Shown here piece after piece: positions 15,424 to 25,840 of a DNA stretch of 64,000 nt (positions within the stretch are counted from its first letter, which is position 1; the number at the start of each line of letters is the position of its first letter). Below the pieces are notes generated by a model. That model worked only from the letters and a program-made list of their open reading frames with translations. It was not told where the DNA came from and did no database searches. A program made the position numbers and the translations under genes. Origin of the DNA: Shinella pollutisoli (GTDB lineage Bacteria; Pseudomonadota; Alphaproteobacteria; Rhizobiales; Rhizobiaceae); contig NZ_JANFDG010000027.1 in assembly GCF_024609765.1 (NCBI RefSeq), positions 1 to 64,000 on the forward strand, written 5' to 3'.

Positions 15424-17871
15424 TCAGAAGGAAACCACGGCCTCCATGCCGGGGCCGCGCACCTCGCCCGAGGGGCGCGCGGCCGGATCGGTCGCGGCAA
15501 GCGGTGTGAGCCGCACGGTCCTGACGGAGCCCGGCGCGAGGTGGAACCAGTTGTCGGAGAGGCCGAAGCCCGGCGCCTCGATCGCCACGGACTGGGCGAA
15601 GCGATCCGCCGAAAGGGCGAGCGCCCATCCCGCCGCGTCCTGCTCCAGCGTCGCCGTCACCGCGGCGGGGAAGAGCGCGGCGGCACGGCCGCGCGGGAAA
15701 TGGAAGGCCTCGGCGAGAACGGTCCCCTCCGCATCCGTCAGCCGCGCGACGGTGACGTCGTGGGCGGGCGGGCCGAAGCGGAAGGCATAGGTCGTGTCGA
15801 AGAAGGCGCCGAAGAGCGCGGTCGCGGCGACGGTCGCGGCGGAGCGGGGGCCGAGCGACAGCGCCTGCCGGCCGCTCACCACCGGCTGGCGGCCGTGGCG
15901 CAGGCAGGCAAGCTCGACGGCAAGATCGAGCGTTTCCGGTCCGTCGTTGACGACGTGGAGGTCGAGGCCGTTGGTGCCCTCGTCGGACAGGAGAAGCTGC
16001 ACGGGACGGAAGGCGCGGCGCAGCGCGTGCCAGGCGGATTTCGGCAGGCCGGTCGCGTCCACGACGCCCCAGCCGGCGCCGGGCAGGAGGTCCTGGAAGG
16101 TCCAGACCAGCGCGCCGCCGCAGCCGGAGGCCGGCCGGCGCCATTCGGCGAAGGTTGCCTCCATCACCTCGGCGACGACGGCGCGCGAAAGATCGAGGTA
16201 GCGGGCCGGGTCCTCGCGGCGCAGGCGGGCGGGGTCCTCGCCGTAGAGGTCGTTCAGGTAGTGGTCGCGCACGTCCTCGAAGTCCCAGGAGGCGCCGCGG
16301 TCGCGCGGCACGCGGGCCTTCCAGCGCGGGTCGTGCACGGCGGGCACGGGCAGGTGCGCCTCCAGCGTCTCGCGCTCCGGCACGTTGGCGAAGGCGAGGC
16401 TTTCGGCGGCGAAGCGCACCCCGGCGCGGCGCGCGTCCTCCAGCGGCCGGCAATAGGCGCCGACGCCGTAATAGTGCGTGACGCCGGCATTGGGCGAGAA
16501 CGGCATCGCCCCGCCGCTCGGCGAATTCTCCACATAGGCCACGTCGGGACGGTGCGCGGCCACGAGCGCCGGCAGGACCTCGCGGGTGAGCGGGCCGCCG
16601 CGGGCACCCTCCGGCAGGCCGAGCATCGCCGCCTGCTGGTCGATCTCGCTGCCGCCGCAAAACACCGCGAGCGACGGCGAGGCGGCGGTCGCATCGAGGA
16701 ACTGCGCGACCTCGCGGCGGACGTTGTCCACGAAAGCCGGGTCGCCCGCGGGATAGTCGAAATTGGCGAGCATCGCATCCTGCCAGACCATCAGGCCGAG
16801 CTCGTCGCAGAGCGCGAAGAAGTCCGCCGTCTCGTAGGCCATGGTGCCGCCGATGCGCAGCATGTTCATGTTCGCCCCGGCGGCGAGCCGGAGCAGCGGT
16901 TCGCAGCGCTCGCGCGCGCCCGGCAGGTCGACGATGTCGGCCGTGGTCCAGACGGCGCCGCGGCAGAAGATCCGCTCGCCGTTGACGCGCAGGGCAAAAC
17001 CGTTTCCGTCGGCACCGCGGTCGATCTCGACGCGGCGGAAGCCGGTGCGGCCGAGCGGATGGCGCACGCCGCCGGACACGAGGGCGACGTCGTGCAGCGC
17101 GGGCCGGCCGTGGGTGCGCGGCCACCAGGGCTCGACGCCGGGAAGCGAAAGCTCGGCGGCGAAGCGGCCCTCGCCGTCCGCGACCATCGTCACGCCGGCG
17201 CCCGCGCATTCCAGCACCGGTGCGGCCGCGCCGTCGAGCGCGAGGCGGACGGCGAGCCGGCCCGTGCCGTCGGCGTCGAGGCTGGCGGCGATGCGCACGT
17301 CGCGGGGGACGGCGGGATCGGCGCGCACGAGGCGGACGGGCCGCCAGGGACCGGCGGCATGGACCTCCGGGCACCAGCCCGGCATGCGGCCGAGCAGGGT
17401 GGAGCGCACCAGCCGCATGCCCTGCGGCACGATCATCTGCGGCCGCCAGCGGGCGCGCGGCCCGCGCCTTTCGAGATGCGGCCGCAGCGCGCGGAAGCAG
17501 AGGTCGAGGCGATCGCGGCCGGTCAGGTCCACGGGCAGGTCATGGCCGACGAACATGCTGTCGGAGGAAAGCACGCGCGCGCCGTTCCACCAGACCTCGC
17601 AGACCGTCGCCAGCCCCTCGAAGCGCAGCACGGCCGGACCGGGCGGCTCGCCGGAAAGGTCGAGGCCGTACCAGGCGTCGAGATGGTCGAGCGGGGCGGG
17701 TGCGGTCCGCTCGAAGCGGCCCGCCCGCTCCAGCGCGCCGGCGACGGTGCCGGGTACCGGTGCATCGATGCGGTCGGGGAAGGCGTCGAGCGCGGCGGGT
17801 TCCGCAGCCGCGCCGGCCGGCGTCAGCACCATGCGCCAGCCGGAAGAAAGGTCCCGTCCCGTCGCCGCCAT
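15424..17871 (-). CDS. Glycoside hydrolase family 2 protein, beta-mannosidase-like
   Basis: An 815-aa GH2 enzyme: N-terminal sugar-binding jelly roll (about 1-170, with PGTVAGALERAG and YGLDLSGE), an Ig-like domain, the TIM barrel (about 290-600) and C-terminal beta domains. The expected acid/base is Glu409 in FCGGSEID, and the nucleophile Glu490 in FAAESLAF. The spacing fits beta-mannosidase-type GH2. No signal peptide is present, so it is probably cytoplasmic. ATG 17871 with GAGGGAG upstream is preferred to ATG 17901, which would overlap the upstream gene. It is the last gene of the operon that starts with the carrier protein, 10 nt after DUF1839. Confidence 0.85.
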   Translation of the reverse strand: MAATGRDLSSGWRMVLTPAGAAAEPAALDAFPDRIDAPVPGTVAGALERAGRFERTAPAPLDHLDAWYGLDLSGEPPGPAVLRFEGLATVCEVWWNGARVLSSDSMFVGHDLPVDLTGRDRLDLCFRALRPHLERRGPRARWRPQMIVPQGMRLVRSTLLGRMPGWCPEVHAAGPWRPVRLVRADPAVPRDVRIAASLDADGTGRLAVRLALDGAAAPVLECAGAGVTMVADGEGRFAAELSLPGVEPWWPRTHGRPALHDVALVSGGVRHPLGRTGFRRVEIDRGADGNGFALRVNGERIFCRGAVWTTADIVDLPGARERCEPLLRLAAGANMNMLRIGGTMAYETADFFALCDELGLMVWQDAMLANFDYPAGDPAFVDNVRREVAQFLDATAASPSLAVFCGGSEIDQQAAMLGLPEGARGGPLTREVLPALVAAHRPDVAYVENSPSGGAMPFSPNAGVTHYYGVGAYCRPLEDARRAGVRFAAESLAFANVPERETLEAHLPVPAVHDPRWKARVPRDRGASWDFEDVRDHYLNDLYGEDPARLRREDPARYLDLSRAVVAEVMEATFAEWRRPASGCGGALVWTFQDLLPGAGWGVVDATGLPKSAWHALRRAFRPVQLLLSDEGTNGLDLHVVNDGPETLDLAVELACLRHGRQPVVSGRQALSLGPRSAATVAATALFGAFFDTTYAFRFGPPAHDVTVARLTDAEGTVLAEAFHFPRGRAAALFPAAVTATLEQDAAGWALALSADRFAQSVAIEAPGFGLSDNWFHLAPGSVRTVRLTPLAATDPAARPSGEVRGPGMEAVVSF

Positions 17872-17881
17872 GCCGTCTCCC

Positions 17882-18850
17882 TCAGCCGAAACGCGCGGCA
17901 AGCGCCGCCGTCAGGCTTTCCCAGGCCTCGGCGGCCGGGTCGAGGGCGGTCGCGAGCGGCGCGAACTTCTTCCGCGTCACCGCCCGGGCGAGCTGGAACT
18001 GCACGGACTTCGCCGTCTCCGAGATCCGCCGCGCCGCATCCGCCGCCGGCGCCAGGCCGCCGTCCGGCGCGATCCAGTCGAGATGGGCGGCGGCGAGCTC
18101 GAAATTGGCGCCGAGCTGGCGCAGCGTGTTGAAGGCATATTTGTGGAAGAAGCCGAAAGGCCGTTCCGCCACCGCCTCGACCTGCGCGGGGAAGACCGCC
18201 GCGAAGGCCGCGACCGGGTTTGCGGCGGGCCGCCGCGCGAAATGGACGGCGAGCAGCCGTTCGGCCTCGCGGCGCAGATGCGCCTCGTCCGGCGGGGCGG
18301 CCGGGAACTTGGCGAATTCCGCGTAGGGCAGGAAGGGCAGGTCGTCGGGCCCGTCCAGCCGGTGGAACAGGCCGTCGAAATCCTCGCCGTCCAGCCGGAA
18401 GAAGCCGGCATTGTGGAAATAGTCGAGCCCGCGGCCCTCGAGGTCCAGCCGGTTGACCGCGACCGTCGTCTTGCCGTGCTCCTGGCGATAGGCGACGCCG
18501 CGCGTGTCGGGCAGGAAATAGCTGTCCAGCTCGACGAGGCAGAGCCGTCCGCGCGCGAGCTGGGCGAGAACGTGGGTCTCCACCCGGTCGTAGATCGCAA
18601 GCTCGGTGCAGCGGATGCCGTAGAGGGATTCGAGATCTTCCAGCGGCACCTTGAAGAAGGTGAACTGGTCGCCCTCGAAATCCTGCGTCAGCGTGAAGCC
18701 GAGCATGGCTTCGGGAACCGTGCCGAAGGCGTTCAGCACCTCGATCCAGAGATCGACGTAGCAGTTCGTCTCCGGCCACATGCGTTCCGCGTCGTGCAGC
18801 GCATGCGGCCGGTAGGCCTCGGGCGAAAGCCCGGCGAAGACGGCAGCCAT
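17882..18850 (-). CDS. DUF1839-family protein, candidate aminoacyl transferase
   Basis: A 322-aa protein of the DUF1839 family. A conserved cysteine occurs in ETNCYVDLWIEVLNAFG (Cys30). It is followed by GDQFTFFKVPLEDLESLYGI, LVELDSYFLPDTRG and a helical C-terminal half. The Cys near the N-terminus recalls BtrH-type transferases, which move an aminoacyl group from a carrier protein to a sugar-like acceptor; this is a suggestion from layout and context, not proven homology. It starts 2 nt after the stop of the amino acid:CP ligase and precedes the GH2 gene by 10 nt. ATG 18850 is chosen over an upstream frame start at 18895, which would overlap the ligase. It has no signal peptide. Confidence 0.8.
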   Translation of the reverse strand: MAAVFAGLSPEAYRPHALHDAERMWPETNCYVDLWIEVLNAFGTVPEAMLGFTLTQDFEGDQFTFFKVPLEDLESLYGIRCTELAIYDRVETHVLAQLARGRLCLVELDSYFLPDTRGVAYRQEHGKTTVAVNRLDLEGRGLDYFHNAGFFRLDGEDFDGLFHRLDGPDDLPFLPYAEFAKFPAAPPDEAHLRREAERLLAVHFARRPAANPVAAFAAVFPAQVEAVAERPFGFFHKYAFNTLRQLGANFELAAAHLDWIAPDGGLAPAADAARRISETAKSVQFQLARAVTRKKFAPLATALDPAAEAWESLTAALAARFG

Positions 18851-18852
18851 GC

Positions 18853-19767
18853 TCAGTCCCGGTAGCCGAGTGCCGCGCGGACGCTCTCGGGCCATTCCGC
18901 GACGTCGAGACCGTGGCGGGAAAAGAGCGCGAGCGCGATGCGCTCCAGCCCGAAGCCGACGCAGGCGGTATGCGCCACCGCGCCGTCATCCAGATAGAGG
19001 CCCCATTTCGCGCCGAAGGCGTCCTGGTGGTAGTTGAAGCTCATGCAGGCCGTCGGCTTCGCCGCCGAGGTGACGGGGATCAGGAGCTCGAACTTCAGGT
19101 TCTGGTCGCGCTGGTTGTTGGCGAGCATGCGGCCGGCACGGCCGAAGAACGGGTCGTTGGCGACGTCGATCGTCACGTCGAGGCCGACCTTGGCCATCAT
19201 CTCCAGCCCGCGGTCCATCCAGGTCTGACGGAACGTCGTCACGTGCTCCTGCGTGCCCATGCAGACATATTCGCGCATGCGGAAGAGCTGCTGGCGGGCC
19301 GGGTCGTTCGAGGGCTCGTGGCGGAAGCAGTAGGACTGCAGGTCGTAGAGCCCGCCCCCGGCCGGCAGGCGGCCGCGTTTCGCGATCGTCGGGTAGAGCG
19401 GATAGCAGGCCGCCGGCGTCAGCACGATGTCGGTCGCCTTCTGCTCCTTCGTCCAGTCGCCGCCGACCTCCATGCATTGCAGGAGGCCCATGTGGTCGAG
19501 CTCGCCGCCGCAGAAGCTGTGCACGGTGCCGGCGAGCTGCGGGAAGCTCTTCATGTAGCCGCTCGTCTCGAAATGGGCGCGGTTCATGCCGGGCGGAAAG
19601 CGCATGGCCTCCGCGCCGTCGTCGCCGCCATAGGCGTCGATCAGCCGCTCGAAGCGGGCGATCACGTCCTCGAACAGACCGGAGCGGCCGTAGAGGCCCT
19701 CGACGCCGGTATCGATCAGCAGGCCCGCGTCGAAGAGGCGGTCGAGAAGGGAGGATTGCATGTCCAT
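18853..19767 (-). CDS. Amino acid:[carrier protein] ligase (SerRS-like, class II aaRS homolog)
   Basis: A 304-aa class II aminoacyl-tRNA-synthetase homolog lacking any tRNA-binding arm. Motif 2 is CFRHEPS followed by RMREYVCMG, and motif 3 is [11 protein letters not shown]. The three predicted zinc ligands are Cys121 (AACYPLY), Glu166 (MREYV) and Cys269 (HTACVGFG), the Cys-Glu-Cys set of methanogen-type SerRS. Homologs from Bradyrhizobium and Agrobacterium activate glycine or alanine with ATP and load it on the phosphopantetheine arm of a small carrier protein; they do not charge tRNA. A cognate carrier protein is encoded two genes upstream. ATG 19767 (MDMQSS) has GGGGTGA nearby; ATG 19761 is possible. 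Whether Gly or Ala is used cannot be read here. Confidence 0.92.
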
Positions 19768-19771
19768 GGGA

Positions 19772-20944
19772 TCACCCCGTGAGGCTGGTGTCCTGCCTGT
19801 GCACGAGCAGCAGGTTCGACGTGTTGGCGAGGATACGGTCGTTGGAGATCATCAGCTGCGCCGAATGGGCGTCGCGCAGATGCCGGCCGAGGCTGTAGGG
19901 CGTGCCGTTCTTGTAGCCGAGGATGCCGCAGATCAGCATGGCCTGGTTGACGATCGAAAGGATCGTCTCGGAGGCGGCGATCTTCACGTTGTTCATCGCC
20001 ACGGCGAAGCCCATCGAGGAGAGCCGCTCCGCATCGGCCTTCGCCGTCTCGTATTCGCGAAGGCCGGCGATCGTGCTCGCCTTGACGAGCTGCAGCAGGT
20101 TGACGGCTTCGGCAAGCCGCAGCGCGCCGGGCGGCGGCGTGCCGGGGGTCTTGCGCGCGGCGGCGCGCACGAAGGCCTGGGCGCGGGCGACGGCGTCGAC
20201 GGCGATGCCGTACCAGACGGCGCTCCACAGCAGGTGCGAGGTCGCGAGCATCGACTGCGCGGCGATCTCGGCGAAGGGCTTCGGCAGGATCTGCTCGGCC
20301 GGCGCCTCGCCGGTGAACAGGTAGCCGTCGGAGCAGGTGCCGCGCATGCCGAGCGTGTTCCAGCCCTGCGTGTGCTCCAGCGTGTACTGGTCCCTGGTGA
20401 AGACGGTCATCACCTGGTCGGTGGAGGCGGCGTCGGCATGCGACCGCGAGGTGATCAGGATCGCGTCGGCGTGCGCGCCGTAGGAGATGACGGTCGCGTC
20501 CTTGACGAGCCGGCAGCGGCCGCCCGCGACCTCGATCGCGCAGATGCTGTTGCGCAGGTTGCCGCCGATGCCGCCCTCCGTCGTGGCGGAGGCGAGCAGG
20601 AGCTGCTCGGCGACGATGCGGCGCATGAAGGCGCGGTGCCACTCGCTGTCCGTCCCGTGCGAGACGAGGCTCGACAGCTTGATGTGGTGCATGGCGAAGA
20701 CCATGGCGGCGGCGGCACAGTTCTGGCCGATCAGCGAGCAGACCTCGGCGATCTCGGACAGGCTCGCGCCCTCGCCGCCGAGCTCCGGCGGGATCTGGAT
20801 CGACAGGAGCCGCTCGGCGATCATCGCGTCGACCGCCTCGCGCGGGAAGCGGGCGGCGGCGTCGACGTCGTCGGCATGCGTCGCGGCCACCGCCGCGACG
20901 CGTCCGGCGCGCTCGGCGAGGCTCGTTGCAAGGGCGAGGGTCAT
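19772..20944 (-). CDS. Acyl-CoA-dehydrogenase-like flavoprotein, possibly acting on aminoacyl-carrier protein
   Basis: A 390-aa protein with the acyl-CoA dehydrogenase fold: N-terminal helical domain with [19 protein letters not shown], central beta domain ([15 protein letters not shown]) and C-terminal four-helix domain. At the usual position of the catalytic ExGT motif near the C-terminus it reads [15 protein letters not shown], so the classical glutamate is absent. The base may lie elsewhere, or the reaction may differ (a flavin-dependent oxygenase is one option). It overlaps the carrier-protein stop by ATGA and ends 4 nt before the ligase start, so it is tightly coupled. Oxidation of a carrier-bound aminoacyl group is plausible by analogy with prolyl-carrier dehydrogenases. 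Confidence 0.82.
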
Positions 20945-21210
20945 TCGGCGGCCTCCGCGCTGCCGACGAGGCTTTCCACGGTGCGGGTGATCGCGGCGAT
21001 GCTCTGGAAGGACTTGCGGTTCAGGAGGCTGTCGGGAAACTCGACGTCGAAGGCTTCCTCGACGGCCAGCATGACCTGGACGGAGGCGAAGGAGGAGAGG
21101 CCCGCCGCATAGAGATCGCCGTCGTCGGCAAGCTCTCCGACCGGCATCGGCAATCCGCCGTGCCTGGCGAGAATGTCACGGATCTTCTGCTTCATGTCGT
21201 CGTTCTCCAT
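20941..21210 (-). CDS. Acyl/aminoacyl carrier protein
   Basis: An 89-aa phosphopantetheine carrier protein. The attachment site is in DLYAAGLSSFASVQVML; Ser40 aligns with the DSL serine of acyl carrier proteins, although the preceding residue is Ser instead of Asp. The helix after it (VEEAFDVEFPDSLLNRKSF) is ACP-like. ATG 21210 has AGGAC upstream. ATG 21195 (MKQKIRD) with GGAGAA is equally possible and would give 84 aa. It is first in the five-gene operon with the dehydrogenase-like protein, the SerRS-like ligase, DUF1839 and GH2, and is the expected partner of that ligase. Confidence 0.9.
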   Translation of the reverse strand: MENDDMKQKIRDILARHGGLPMPVGELADDGDLYAAGLSSFASVQVMLAVEEAFDVEFPDSLLNRKSFQSIAAITRTVESLVGSAEAAE

Positions 21211-21534: not shown

Positions 21535-23556
21535 ATGGACATCGACATCTTTCAGCTGCCGGGCATCGTGAGGAAGAGGCTCCACTACGTGGTCTTCTCC
21601 GTGCTCGCCTGCGTCGCGCTCGCCGCCGGCTTCCTCGTGCAGCAGAAGCCGCTCTACCGCTCCACGGCGGAACTCTACGTCGACATGCAGCGGGGGCCCG
21701 TCGTCGGCAGCGGCGCGGGCACGGGGCTCGACACGCAGCAGCTGATCGGTAGCCAGCTCTATTTCCTGCAGTCGCGCGACGTGCTGCGCGACGTGGTCAA
21801 GCGGCTCGACCTAACGAAGGACCCCTATCTCGCCGGCCCCGCCGCCACGGGCGACGCCACGGACGGCGTCGTCGACGCGATCGCGGCCAATCTCCTCGTC
21901 GAGCGCAACGGCGAGAGCTTCGTCTTCGCCATCACCATGAAGCACCGCGACAGCGCGATGGCGGCGAAGATCGCCAACGCCGTCGGCGAAAGCTACCTGC
22001 GGCTCACCGATTCGTCCCGCCTCGACGCCAACCTGAAGACCTCCACGGCGATCGCCGAGGAGACCGAGCAGCTGCGCCAGCGCGTGCTCGAGGCGCGCGC
22101 GGCGGTCGAGACCTTCCGCGCCGAGAACGGCCTCCTCTCCACCGGCCAGCAGGGCCTCATCACCGACCAGCAGCTCGCCGCGCTCAACCAGCAGCTGCTC
22201 GCCGCCCGCCAGCAGGCCGAGCAGCAGAAGGCGGCCTACGACCAGGCCCGCAAGCTCAACCTGTCGGACGTCGAATCGGGCGCCATTCCCGAGGCGCTGC
22301 AATCGGCGTCGCTGTCTGGCCTGCGCACCCGCTACGGGCAGATGCTCGAGCGGCAGGCCGAGCTGTCCGCCAATCTCGGCAACGGCCACCCGCAGATGCG
22401 GGCCGTGCATTCGCAGATCTCCACCATGCGCGCGGCGATCGAGAAGGAGCTGGCGCGCATCCGCGAGCTGACCGCCAACACCTACGAGCGCGCCAACGCC
22501 AATCTCGCCGCCGTGCAGAAGCGCTTCGACGAGCAGACGGCCGCCAACGGCGACAACGGCAAGGTCCGTTTCCGCCTCGCCCAGCTCGTGAGCGAGGCCG
22601 ACACGCTCGACGCCGTCTACAAGTCCTTCCTCACCCGCGCCGAGGAGCTCGGCCGCCAGCAGGACCTCGGCGCCGGCAACTCGCGCATCATCTCGGCCGC
22701 CGTCCCCTCCAGCAACCCGGTGAGGGCGCCGCGGCTGCTCGTGCTCGCCGCCGCCGTGCTGTTCGGCACCGCGGCGGGCGCGGCGCTCGCCGTGCTGCGC
22801 GAGATCGTCGGCGGCTCGCTGCGCTCCGAGCAGGACCTCGTGACGAAGACCGGCGCGCCGGTGCTGGGCACGATCGCGGCGGCCGGCGAGGCACGCGGCG
22901 ACGGCCGCTGGAGCGACAGGCTCGCCCGCGTCGTGCCCTTCGCCCAGCGGGCGGAGCGGCGGGAGACGACGCCGCGCATCTCCGGTCTCACGCGGGCGGC
23001 GCATCTCATCGAGGCACAGTTCGAGCCGGGCGTGCCCGCGACGATCGCGGTCCTGTCGGCCGGCGGCGCCGGCGAGAACGCGGCCCTCGGCCTCGCGCGC
23101 GAGCTGCAGGCCCTCGGCGAGGAGGTACTGTTTTCCGACGGCACGCTGCGCCGGCCGGCGCAGGGCCGGTTCGGCGCCGGCGGCTCGGTGCGCATCCGCA
23201 CCGACATCGCCGCCGTCCGCCGCGACGGGCCGTCGCGCGGGCATCCGCAGGCGCTCGAGGACATGCTGTCCTTCCGCCGCATCGGCGCGGCCGGCCTGCG
23301 CAAGGTGACGGCGCTGTCGTCGGCGCGCGTCAGCACCGCCTTCCGCGATGCGCCGGCCGGCTTCACGATCATCGACTGCTGCGGCACGCCGGCCGAGGCG
23401 ATCCTGCCCGCGGTCCTGCGCCATGTCGACGGCATCCTCGTCGTCTCGGCGCTCGGCGCCACCGGGGCGGAGGCGCTCACCGCCCTCGTCGCCGAGATCG
23501 CGCCCTGGCGCGACAAGCTCATCGGCAACATCCTGGTCGGCGACCGGGCGGCCTGA
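21535..23556 (+). CDS. Polysaccharide co-polymerase / Wzc-like chain-length determinant with degenerate kinase domain
   Basis: A 673-aa inner-membrane protein. TM1 is near residues 18-36, followed by a long periplasmic coiled-coil stretch (about 150-400) and TM2 at residues about 400-425, which begins after the proline-rich VPSSNPVRAPR. This is the Wzz/Wzc layout that sets chain length and bridges to export. The C-terminal part resembles a bacterial tyrosine-kinase domain, but where Walker A should read GxxGxGKS it reads SAGGAGENAA with no lysine. The Walker B-like stretch is FTIIDCCGT, and no Tyr-rich tail is seen. The domain is therefore probably non-catalytic. ATG 21535 begins MDIDIFQLPGIVRKR. 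The next gene follows after 13 nt. Confidence 0.85.
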   Translation: MDIDIFQLPGIVRKRLHYVVFSVLACVALAAGFLVQQKPLYRSTAELYVDMQRGPVVGSGAGTGLDTQQLIGSQLYFLQSRDVLRDVVKRLDLTKDPYLAGPAATGDATDGVVDAIAANLLVERNGESFVFAITMKHRDSAMAAKIANAVGESYLRLTDSSRLDANLKTSTAIAEETEQLRQRVLEARAAVETFRAENGLLSTGQQGLITDQQLAALNQQLLAARQQAEQQKAAYDQARKLNLSDVESGAIPEALQSASLSGLRTRYGQMLERQAELSANLGNGHPQMRAVHSQISTMRAAIEKELARIRELTANTYERANANLAAVQKRFDEQTAANGDNGKVRFRLAQLVSEADTLDAVYKSFLTRAEELGRQQDLGAGNSRIISAAVPSSNPVRAPRLLVLAAAVLFGTAAGAALAVLREIVGGSLRSEQDLVTKTGAPVLGTIAAAGEARGDGRWSDRLARVVPFAQRAERRETTPRISGLTRAAHLIEAQFEPGVPATIAVLSAGGAGENAALGLARELQALGEEVLFSDGTLRRPAQGRFGAGGSVRIRTDIAAVRRDGPSRGHPQALEDMLSFRRIGAAGLRKVTALSSARVSTAFRDAPAGFTIIDCCGTPAEAILPAVLRHVDGILVVSALGATGAEALTALVAEIAPWRDKLIGNILVGDRAA

Positions 23557-23569
23557 GGGAGGGCGGACG

Positions 23570-24793
23570 ATGCAGGCAACCGCCGCCGGGCATCCGGACC
23601 TTGCCGGCGGGACGGAGCTCGCGCCTCCCGTCCTGCGCTTCCTGGCGACCGTCGCCGTCCTCGGGGCGCTCACCTTCAACGCCTTCCTGTGCCTCGTCAA
23701 CACGCGCGTCATGGGCGTCAGCGACAGCCAGGTGATGCTCATGGAGATGGCGATCATCGGCTGTGCGCTGCTCGGGGCCATGACGCGCAGGTTCGCGCTC
23801 TACCTACTCACCGCGGTCTTCGTCAGCTACATGGTCTTCCTGTTCATGATGCGCGGCGGACAGATCAACCCGAAGCCGGTGCGCGACATCCTCATCCCGA
23901 TCGCCTTCTACTTCCTCGGCAGCCGGCTCGCCGACCCGAAGCTCGGCGACCGGCTGGTGCTGGCGAGCGCGCTCGTCGTCGTCGCCTTCGGGCTGTTCGA
24001 ATACCTGCTGCTCGACACGTTCCTCGACTACTTCAACGTCCTCGGCTACTACATCGCCCGCGGCTCGGTGACGCTGGAGAAGGCCTTCGGCCAGACGAAG
24101 GGCCTCTTCATCTCCGGCCAGCGGCCGGAGGCGCGCACGATCCTGCCCTTCCTCGGCCAGCACCGCGTCTCCTCCGTCTTCCTCGAACCGGTCTCGATGG
24201 GCAATTTCGCGGTGATCGCCTATTGCTGGACGCTGTTCCGCGGCCGCGCCTTCGCCGCGCGCTGGCTCGTGCTGGCGCTCATCCTCACCGTGGTGGCGCT
24301 CGCCGACGCGCGCTTCGGCCTCTATACCTGCGTGCTCGTCACCCTGCTCTATCCCTTCTACGGGCTCGTGCCGCGGATCGTCTGGAGCGTCGCGCCGTTC
24401 CTCATGCTGGCGGTGATCGCCGTCTACGGGATAACCTCGGTCGACGGCGGCGGGCCGAACGACATCGCCGGCCGCTTCGCCGTCACCGCGCACATCCTCA
24501 CGCAGCTTTCGACGAGCGTCGTGCTCGGCGTCGAGACGACGAACCTGTTCGTCGCGGATTCGGGGCTCGCCTATACGCTGACCGCCTTCGGCATCGCGGG
24601 GTTCGTCGCGCTCTGGACGCTCTTCGTGCACGCGCCGCTTTCCGACGCGCGGGCCTGGCGGTTCCACTCGATGGGGATCGTCTACCTGCTGCTGCTGATG
24701 CTGATCAGCGATTCCTTCTACTCGATCAAGACGGCCGCGCTGTTCTGGCTGCTGATCGGCATCGCCGGCGCCTGCCGCGCGCGGGACCGCTGA
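23570..24793 (+). CDS. O-antigen ligase/polymerase-like integral membrane protein
   Basis: A 407-aa protein with about ten hydrophobic helices, resembling Wzy/ExoQ-type polymerases that join lipid-linked repeat units in the periplasm. A large loop between helices (about 150-200) contains TKGLFISGQRPEARTILPFLGQHRVSS and then FLEPVSMGNFAV, conserved in this group. ATG 23570 has GGAGGG upstream and follows the Wzc-like gene by 13 nt, so the two form an operon. Its stop lies 3 nt from the stop of the convergent GH5 gene. Confidence 0.75.
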   Translation: MQATAAGHPDLAGGTELAPPVLRFLATVAVLGALTFNAFLCLVNTRVMGVSDSQVMLMEMAIIGCALLGAMTRRFALYLLTAVFVSYMVFLFMMRGGQINPKPVRDILIPIAFYFLGSRLADPKLGDRLVLASALVVVAFGLFEYLLLDTFLDYFNVLGYYIARGSVTLEKAFGQTKGLFISGQRPEARTILPFLGQHRVSSVFLEPVSMGNFAVIAYCWTLFRGRAFAARWLVLALILTVVALADARFGLYTCVLVTLLYPFYGLVPRIVWSVAPFLMLAVIAVYGITSVDGGGPNDIAGRFAVTAHILTQLSTSVVLGVETTNLFVADSGLAYTLTAFGIAGFVALWTLFVHAPLSDARAWRFHSMGIVYLLLLMLISDSFYSIKTAALFWLLIGIAGACRARDR

Positions 24794-24796
24794 GGA

Positions 24797-25840
24797 TCAG
24801 CGGCGCAGCGCCATGCAGGCATGCGGCGCCTCGCCGGAGACGAGCGCCTTCAGCTGGGGGCGGTCGCCCGCCGCCGTCGGCTGGATGTTGAGCGGCTCGT
24901 CCTCCGGCCACCAGTCGCCGCCCGCCCAGTAGGTCCAGCCCGACCAGACGTCCGGCAGCCCGTCGACATGCGCCACCATGCGGGAGAGCCCGTCGAGGCA
25001 GGCCTTGTCGTCCGATCCGCCGAACTCGCCGAGGAAGCCGCGCGCATTGTTGCGGCGCAGCCAGGCCGTGAAGTTCTCGAGCGCCGCCACCGCGTCGTCC
25101 GCCCGCTCGCAGCTCGGCGAGGTGCCGGAAAAGTCGCTGTCGAGATACTGGTGGACCTCGTAGGCGAAATTGCCGGCCGGGTCCTCGACGCCGAGCATCA
25201 CCGTGCCGTTGGCGCCGCCCGGCAGCTCCTTCTCCCAGCTGTGCGCGCCGCTCCAGATCGTTCCCGGCACGAGCACGAGGTTCTTCGCCCCGGCCTTGCG
25301 GATCGCGGCGATGGCGGCGTTGACAGCGGAAAGCCATTGCGTGGCGGAAATGTCGTGCGGCTCGTTCATCAGGCCGAACTGCACGCCCTGGTCGTCGCGA
25401 TACTCGCGCGCGAGCCGGCGCCAGAAGTCGGCGAAGGCGCTGTCCGGCACGTCGGGCGAGCCGATCTGCGCGCCGTCGTAATAGGCGTAGTTGTGCACGT
25501 CGAGGATGACCGTCATTCCCGCGCGCCGGATCTCGGCCACGGCGGCGGCGAGGCGCAGGCGCTCCTCCCGGTCGAAGCCGCGGCCGAGACGCGGCTGGAG
25601 CCGCTCCCACTTGAAGGGCAGCCGCACGGCGTTGAAGCCCTTACCGGCATAGTAGGCGATCGTCTCCGGCGAGGGATAGATGTAGTCGGTGCCGTAGCTG
25701 CCGATCCCGCCGCCGAACTCCGCGCCGGCGAGGTTGACGCCGCGCAGGCAGGCGGCCTCGGCGCCGGCGGCGACCGCAAGCGCCAGCGTCGTCGCCGCGG
25801 CGAGGCGGCCGAGGAAGGGCATGTCCAGGCAAGGTCGCAT
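24797..25840 (-). CDS. Secreted glycoside hydrolase family 5 (cellulase-type endoglucanase)
   Basis: A 347-aa GH5 enzyme with a signal peptide (residues 1-30, cleavage near AEA/AC). The barrel runs over the rest: RLPFKWERLQP, VILDVHNYAYYDG, the acid/base Glu160 in FGLMNEPHD and the nucleophile Glu272 in FLGEFGG. It hydrolyses beta-1,4-glucan or a related beta-glucan, probably in the periplasm or outside. A glucanase inside a polysaccharide locus usually trims or releases polymer during synthesis. ATG 25840 has GGAG at good spacing; ATG 25822 is an alternative. The GT4 gene lies 30 nt upstream, on the same strand. Confidence 0.88.
   Translation of the reverse strand: MRPCLDMPFLGRLAAATTLALAVAAGAEAACLRGVNLAGAEFGGGIGSYGTDYIYPSPETIAYYAGKGFNAVRLPFKWERLQPRLGRGFDREERLRLAAAVAEIRRAGMTVILDVHNYAYYDGAQIGSPDVPDSAFADFWRRLAREYRDDQGVQFGLMNEPHDISATQWLSAVNAAIAAIRKAGAKNLVLVPGTIWSGAHSWEKELPGGANGTVMLGVEDPAGNFAYEVHQYLDSDFSGTSPSCERADDAVAALENFTAWLRRNNARGFLGEFGGSDDKACLDGLSRMVAHVDGLPDVWSGWTYWAGGDWWPEDEPLNIQPTAAGDRPQLKALVSGEAPHACMALRR

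What the first reader, a model, noticed from the sequence alone, without database searches (positions are those of the whole stretch)
15424..21210. Carrier-protein-dependent amino acid pathway encoded as one operon (carrier protein, flavoprotein, SerRS-like aa:CP ligase, DUF1839, GH2)
Five genes on one strand have 4-nt overlaps or gaps of at most 10 nt. The ligase keeps the Cys-Glu-Cys zinc set and motifs 2 and 3, but has no tRNA arm. Homologous ligases load Gly or Ala on a carrier protein; I know of no established product. Adding a dehydrogenase-like enzyme, a Cys-bearing DUF1839 protein and a glycosidase predicts this order: activation on the phosphopantetheine arm, oxidation or other change, then transfer to a sugar-like acceptor or glycan. 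This is the strongest candidate for an undescribed system here.
Basis: partly seen in the sequence, partly recalled or inferred. Interest (0 to 1): 0.88.

Follow-up and report, generated by a model that had tools for sequence, protein, structure and literature searches.

The report
Carrier-protein aminoacyl transfer operon near exopolysaccharide genes
This soil bacterium carries a conserved five-gene set that very probably loads an amino acid onto a small carrier protein, alters it and hands it to a sugar, perhaps of a surface polysaccharide; a similar idea was printed in 2010, but the new evidence names the likely type of transfer enzyme and makes the idea testable.

The parts
20941..21210 (-). 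stand-alone carrier protein, 89 aa; phosphopantetheine Ser40 in GLSSF
   Evidence: PF00550 33.7 bits, NF005480 112.9 bits over cut-off 72; Ser40 in 86 of 86 rows
19772..20944 (-). flavoprotein of acyl-CoA dehydrogenase fold, 390 aa; no Glu at the canonical C-terminal site; invariant H86, H237, W240, W244, N368
18853..19767 (-). SerRS-like amino acid:[carrier protein] ligase, 304 aa, zinc set C121/E151/C269, no tRNA-binding arm
   Evidence: NF005479 508 bits; PDB relatives 4h2w and 3mey (Bll0957), E 2e-97 and 1.1e-92; residues 176 of 176
17882..18895 (-). DUF1839 protein, 337 aa (or from ATG 18850); predicted papain-fold Cys acyltransferase of CcbD type, Cys45
15424..17871 (-). GH2 glycosidase of beta-mannosidase type, acid/base E409 and nucleophile E490 kept
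   Evidence: beta-mannosidase 2vjx E 1.3e-44 with both Glu aligned (which Glu are catalytic is recalled); E409 and E490 in 99 of 99 rows of at least 80% coverage
14524..15411 (+). neighbour: family 2 glycosyltransferase
   Evidence: PF00535 77.7 bits; relatives in 13 of 79 loci
21535..23556 (+). neighbour: Wzz/GumC-like chain-length protein, divergent from the operon
   Evidence: PF02706, PF13807; TIGR01005 below its cut-off
23558..24793 (+). neighbour: conserved protein in the place of a Wzy polymerase (no Pfam hit; start assumed)
   Evidence: cluster c14 in 7 of 55 loci; no Pfam
24797..25840 (-). neighbour: GH5 cellulase-type glycosidase
   Evidence: PF00150 177.6 bits
25871..27127 (-). neighbour: family 4 glycosyltransferase
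   Evidence: PF13439/PF00534
27263..29041 (+). neighbour: ABC exporter
   Evidence: PF00664/PF00005

Best explanation
The operon is a carrier-protein-dependent aminoacylation pathway that most likely decorates a sugar of a surface polysaccharide before export. Step 1: the SerRS-like ligase adenylates a small amino acid (Gly or Ala in characterised relatives) and loads it on the phosphopantetheine arm of the carrier protein (inferred by strong homology). Step 2: the flavoprotein oxidises or oxygenates the carrier-bound aminoacyl group (inferred from gene linkage and from carrier-bound precedents; reaction unknown). Step 3: DUF1839 takes the group onto Cys45 and passes it to a sugar nucleophile, as CcbD does with proline and the lincosamide amino sugar (inferred from fold and conservation). 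Step 4: the acceptor is a sugar of a polysaccharide precursor on the cytoplasmic side, which the neighbouring machinery then exports (weakest step). GH2 would trim or proof-read a beta-glycoside of this pathway; it is the least explained part. My step-wise odds: loading 0.9, DUF1839 as acyltransferase 0.8, flavoprotein acting on the carrier-bound group 0.65, polysaccharide acceptor 0.45.
For: Ligase: 508 bits to NF005479 and close to the Bll0957 structures. Gly/Ala loading of relatives: PMC5370406, passages. Linkage: 16 of 398 genomes of the phylum sample have DUF1839, and all 16 are among the 28 of 398 with the ligase over cut-off; on a quick tree of 35 ligases the 23 from DUF1839 loci are one side of a branch (SH-aLRT 97, one change, after the labels of three rows were corrected). 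DUF1839: full-length match to CcbD, AziU2/U3 and CtaG far above other rows; CcbD takes carrier-bound proline on its Cys and gives it to the sugar amine (PMC12945683, passages). Cys45 in 135 of 140 rows; the five Cys-less rows are operon copies of two Burkholderiales genomes (G541, G610). In these and in Cupriavidus metallidurans the operon copy lost Cys45, T143 and T144 while keeping D124, H140 and H161, and a second copy beside ManC and Wzc keeps all six. Polysaccharide context: two or more panel genes in 45 of 79 loci (window included) and 9 of 22 others, against 0 of 17 ligase loci without DUF1839. In B. cenocepacia (L179) and B. multivorans (L180) a CRP-family gene lies upstream on the same strand and a VpsR-type sigma-54 activator follows GH2 on the other strand, then ManC; published tags give BCAM1342 = berB and BCAM1349 = berA (PMC9684580, passages).
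Against: No reaction is tested here. 34 of 79 and 11 of 22 DUF1839 loci show no panel gene within the fetched flank; Azospirillum (L175), Mycetohabitans (L176) and Caballeronia (L177) show no polysaccharide cluster in about 10 kb either side, though L176 has a membrane acyltransferase upstream and L175 and L176 the tandem alpha/beta hydrolase. The published Bep repeat (Gal-Glc-Gal-Man) has no amino sugar, so an amide as in CcbD cannot sit on it (PMC7084887, passages). DUF1839 has no significant profile match to BtrH_N (hhalign probability 3.6 and 1.7) and no CcbD hit in PDB sequence searches. A beta-mannosidase-type GH2 does not fit an all-alpha polymer. One genome (G186) has the other four genes without GH2 in an 18-kb stretch (L164).
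Confidence: 0.45

Rival explanations
1. The pathway makes a small soluble aminoacyl-sugar or other diffusible metabolite, lincosamide-like in logic, and GH2 processes a glycosylated precursor; nearness to polysaccharide genes is incidental.
For: CcbD acts in antibiotic biosynthesis, and so do, as recalled, the CtaG and AziU2/U3 proteins; 45 of 101 DUF1839 loci have no panel polysaccharide gene nearby; by eye none of the five window proteins begins with a signal peptide (sequences).
Against: The unit sits in polysaccharide loci of both alpha- and betaproteobacteria; no sugar-nucleotide pathway is part of the five-gene unit.
Confidence: 0.27
2. As predicted in print in 2010: the aminoacyl group goes by an amide bond to the amino group of a cell-surface amino sugar, with the conserved ORF (Atu2574) as ligase and the redox enzyme as a likely monooxygenase. 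This is the amide-specific form of the best explanation and overlaps with it.
For: Iyer et al. 2010, note added in proof, section read whole; CcbD forms such an amide; nitrososynthase-type chains (3m9v, 4zxv, 3mxl) are among the nearest PDB relatives of the flavoprotein.
Against: If Bep is the target in B. cenocepacia there is no amino sugar in its backbone; a base-labile ester would be needed there.
Confidence: 0.2
3. DUF1839 only releases the modified amino acid from the carrier (thioesterase); the product is a free oxidised amino acid.
For: Papain-like enzymes include many peptidases and amidases (PMC10318531, passages).
Confidence: 0.1
4. The five genes are conserved neighbours without a joint pathway.
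For: GH2 has no clear place in the chemistry and is absent beside the operon of G186.
Against: Same order in 79 of 80 loci and in three further genera read with annotation; 16 of 16 co-occurrence of DUF1839 with the ligase.
Confidence: 0.03

Closest known systems
Lincosamide synthetase (CcbC/LmbC, carrier domain of CcbZ/LmbN, CcbD/LmbD)
   Same: Amino acid on a carrier protein is moved by a Cys enzyme of the same full-length fold as DUF1839
   Different: Activation there is by an A-domain, here by an aaRS-derived ligase; a flavoprotein and a GH2 belong to the unit here; no sequence similarity detected
Amino acid:[carrier protein] ligases such as Bll0957
   Same: Same ligase family, zinc set and core
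   Different: The 12 of 28 ligase-positive genomes without DUF1839 keep ligase and flavoprotein in the 10 loci laid out, with other genes behind the ligase
Pathway predicted by Iyer et al. 2010 (PMC2922099)
   Same: Same neighbourhood: ligase, carrier protein, redox enzyme, conserved ORF Atu2574, glycosidase, liposaccharide genes
BtrH of butirosin
   Same: Acyl carrier protein:aminoglycoside acyltransferase with a papain-like domain (PMC10318531, passage)
   Different: Profile comparison with BtrH_N is not significant; weak Pfam hits in 3 of 31 members, best E 0.0021
AlmEFG glycine transfer to lipid A and Dlt D-alanylation (recalled)
   Same: Small amino acid, stand-alone carrier protein, envelope glycoconjugate target
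   Different: A-domain activation and other transferase families (recalled); the carrier protein has only a below-cut-off hit to DltC (27.8 bits, cut-off 68)
ColB1 flavoprotein (7xp7)
   Same: Acyl-CoA dehydrogenase fold acting on an assembly-line-tethered amino acid (entry title)

Membership tests
Amino acid:[carrier protein] ligase (NF005479) | curated NCBIfam score | tested here: met
   508.3 bits, cut-off 357
Amino acid:[carrier protein] ligase (NF005479) | zinc set Cys-Glu-Cys and motif 2/3 Arg | tested here: met
   C121, E151, C269, R149, R276 in 176 of 176 rows
Amino acid:[carrier protein] ligase (NF005479) | loads Gly or Ala on its carrier protein and does not charge tRNA | not testable with these tools
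   needs enzyme assay
CcbD/LmbD condensation enzymes | full-length fold | tested here: met
CcbD/LmbD condensation enzymes | catalytic Cys at the start of the first papain helix | tested here: met
   Cys45 starts helix 45-57; 135 of 140 rows; that this is the place of the catalytic Cys is recalled
CcbD/LmbD condensation enzymes | Cys-His-Glu triad | tested here: inconclusive
   H140 and H161 invariant, T143/T144 lost together with the Cys; PMC10318531 proposes Cys-Thr/Ser-His; no coordinates could be read
CcbD/LmbD condensation enzymes | detectable sequence similarity | tested here: not met
   no CcbD chain up to E 5
CcbD/LmbD condensation enzymes | carrier-protein docking and sugar amine as acceptor | not testable with these tools
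   needs assay or complex structure
BtrH_N (PF14399) | Pfam hit over its cut-off | tested here: not met
   no hit for the window protein up to E 5, hits in 3 of 31 members with best E 0.0021; hhalign probability 3.6 and 1.7
Acyl-CoA dehydrogenase | fold | tested here: met
Acyl-CoA dehydrogenase | catalytic Glu at the canonical C-terminal site | tested here: not met
   mostly S or N at 367 and N368 in 140 of 140 rows; the canonical position is recalled, and an alternative base elsewhere, as in isovaleryl-CoA dehydrogenase, was not mapped
GH2 beta-mannosidase | acid/base and nucleophile Glu | tested here: met
   E409 and E490, 99 of 99 rows, aligned to Glu of a solved beta-mannosidase
GH2 beta-mannosidase | substrate specificity | not testable with these tools
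   needs assay

The most novel reading that the evidence does not exclude
An aaRS-derived, carrier-protein-based system puts an oxidised amino acid on the repeat unit of biofilm polysaccharides across alpha- and betaproteobacteria, is governed by c-di-GMP where it lies beside berA and berB, and uses DUF1839 as a further branch of the CcbD/CtaG/AziU transferase fold; a base-labile aminoacyl substituent of Bep-type polysaccharides would then have been lost in the published alkaline preparation.
Probability: 0.25. Interest if true: 0.85.

Novelty: new variant of a known kind. Interest (0 to 1): 0.62.

Why it matters
[quoted passage not shown] Naming DUF1839 as a CcbD-type aminoacyl transferase gives a defined second half-reaction to assay, and the place of the operon between the genes of the two c-di-GMP effectors of Bep offers a phenotype to look for. 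It would also mean that amino acid substituents on biofilm polysaccharides may be overlooked when alkali is used to dissolve them.

Tried and rejected

Limits. The first label set of the ligase tree was wrong for three rows (L177, L002, L011 do hold DUF1839) and was corrected; the tree is a quick one. My ORF caller is simple and merges or extends some genes; cluster c5 mixes a Wzx-type protein with the tandem alpha/beta hydrolase. Counts take one row per locus and include overlapping loci of the same genomes. The two titles of the AziU2/U3 entries do not say which subunit the matching chain is. The BCAM numbers for L179 rest on gene order against a published table, as the record has no annotation there; six tags lie between berB and berA and I find five operon genes. 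Papers: tags BCAM1344 to BCAM1348 occur in no held paper (4 papers hold one of six tags, in each only BCAM1342); BCAM1343 shows no occurrence in the 20 listed of 50 papers; tags of strain H111 were not searched. L055 was at first taken for a cut contig; one search showed that it is a fragment joined to other DNA.
Full report
Place and identity. The window is G000:C20:1-64000 of a 5.2-Mb genome. Same-genus loci L091 and L092 are identical over their 3.9 kb to Shinella records L008 and L009, so the genus is Shinella.

Conservation. tblastn of the five window proteins found the order carrier, flavoprotein, ligase, DUF1839, GH2 in 79 of these 80 loci; L056 is among the 79 although its contig cuts the outer genes. 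L055 holds a 1.9-kb fragment only, joined on both sides to other DNA. The same order is annotated in Azospirillum lipoferum 4B, Mycetohabitans rhizoxinica and a Caballeronia and found by tblastn in Cupriavidus metallidurans, Burkholderia cenocepacia and B. multivorans. DUF1839 occurs in 18 of 21 genomes of the genus, 4 of 289 of the class sample and 16 of 398 of the phylum sample, the window's genome counted in each. The ligase is over its cut-off in 28 of the 398, and all 16 DUF1839 genomes are among these. Of the other 12, I laid out 10 in wide regions (L139-L148), and all 10 have the flavoprotein beside the ligase. So carrier, ligase and flavoprotein look like an older core, and DUF1839 with GH2 marks one branch of it: on a quick tree of 35 ligases the 23 from DUF1839 loci are one side of a branch (SH-aLRT 97, one change, 0 of 500 shuffles as low). 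G186 keeps carrier, flavoprotein, ligase and DUF1839 but shows no GH2 in 18 kb.

Active sites. Ligase: zinc set and class II arginines in 176 of 176 rows. Carrier: Ser40 in 86 of 86. GH2: both glutamates in 99 of 99. DUF1839: Cys45 in 135 of 140; D76, D124, H140 and H161 in 140 of 140. Flavoprotein: H86, H237, W240, W244 and N368 in 140 of 140, no Glu at the canonical site (rows overlap between loci of the same genomes and are not independent). The five Cys-less DUF1839 rows come from two genomes, G541 and G610. In both, and in Cupriavidus metallidurans (L178), the operon copy lost Cys45, T143 and T144 but kept D124, H140 and H161, while a second copy beside ManC and Wzc keeps all of them. This looks like division of labour after duplication, and it ties T143/T144 to the Cys.

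Flavoprotein. The nearest solved sequences are acyl-CoA dehydrogenases, then 3m9v/4kcf (KijD3 as recalled), DnmZ and the nitrososynthase 3mxl. Its model ties with dehydrogenases and monooxygenases. Its reaction cannot be named. Loss of the canonical Glu, and an invariant His86 that in the printed alignments lies at or beside a His of the DnmZ and 3m9v segments, lean slightly towards an oxygenase (inference).

Context. In the window the operon stands between a glycosyltransferase and a divergent Wzz-like gene, followed by a gene in the place of Wzy, GH5, a glycosyltransferase and an ABC exporter. On another contig of the same genome a glycosyltransferase, a Wzx-type gene and the tandem alpha/beta hydrolase that lies near GH2 in other loci stand in a row. 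Over loci longer than 12 kb, two or more genes of a ten-gene polysaccharide panel occur in 45 of 79 and 9 of 22 DUF1839 loci against 0 of 17 ligase loci without DUF1839; one or more in 45, 11 and 3. The panel was drawn from DUF1839 loci, seven of the 17 controls are distant ligases, and at least four of the 22 repeat contigs of the 79, so this is a leaning and not a test. In B. cenocepacia L179 the order is CRP-family gene, operon, VpsR-type activator on the other strand, ManC, two glycosyltransferases; B. multivorans L180 and the unnamed G606 share the CRP gene and the activator, the latter at 95-96% identity. A published table gives BCAM1330-1341 as bep, BCAM1342 as berB and BCAM1349 as berA (PMC9684580), and BerA and BerB bind c-di-GMP (PMC5552954, passages). 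I infer that the operon is among BCAM1343-1348. The Bep repeat has neutral hexoses only and was extracted in 0.3 M NaOH (PMC7084887, passages), so an ester would have been missed and an amide is not possible on that backbone.

Against known ideas. That Atu2574 is a DUF1839 protein I take from the text and the conserved order; the Agrobacterium C58 locus was not read here. What this study adds is a structural argument for the transfer step, the paired loss of Cys45 with T143/T144 in two-copy genomes, the place beside berA and berB, and a possible correction (ester instead of amide) for Bep-type targets. The chemistry itself remains untested.

Noticed in passing
loci L005-L084, upstream of the carrier protein: EF-P, EpmA and EpmB relatives occur in the fetched stretch of 61 of 79 loci longer than 12 kb; in the loci laid out they stand directly upstream of the operon. 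Another aaRS-derived modification system as neighbour; functional link unknown.
   Followed up: partly
L139-L142 (group g232, Bradyrhizobium-like): Behind ligase and flavoprotein comes an ORF of roughly 290 aa without a Pfam hit that looks GNAT-like by eye, in the place of DUF1839; it may be another transferase.
   Followed up: partly
L150, L152, L158, L178: Burkholderiales with two DUF1839 genes; the operon copy is Cys-less and the copy beside ManC keeps the Cys in three genomes.
   Followed up: yes
L055 4136-6069: Fragment of the operon joined on both sides to other DNA in Rhizobium leguminosarum Vaf-46: broken copy or misassembly.
   Followed up: partly
window 23100-23188: ARAGORN calls a tRNA-Arg inside the Wzz-like reading frame; probably a false positive.
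   Followed up: no
G000:C2, locus L182 6509-11945: Glycosyltransferase, Wzx-type and tandem alpha/beta hydrolase genes in a row, next to a polysaccharide deacetylase, in the same genome.
   Followed up: partly
L166-L174: More distant ligase homologues of other families stand without DUF1839, GH2 or the flavoprotein; their context was not worked out.
   Followed up: no
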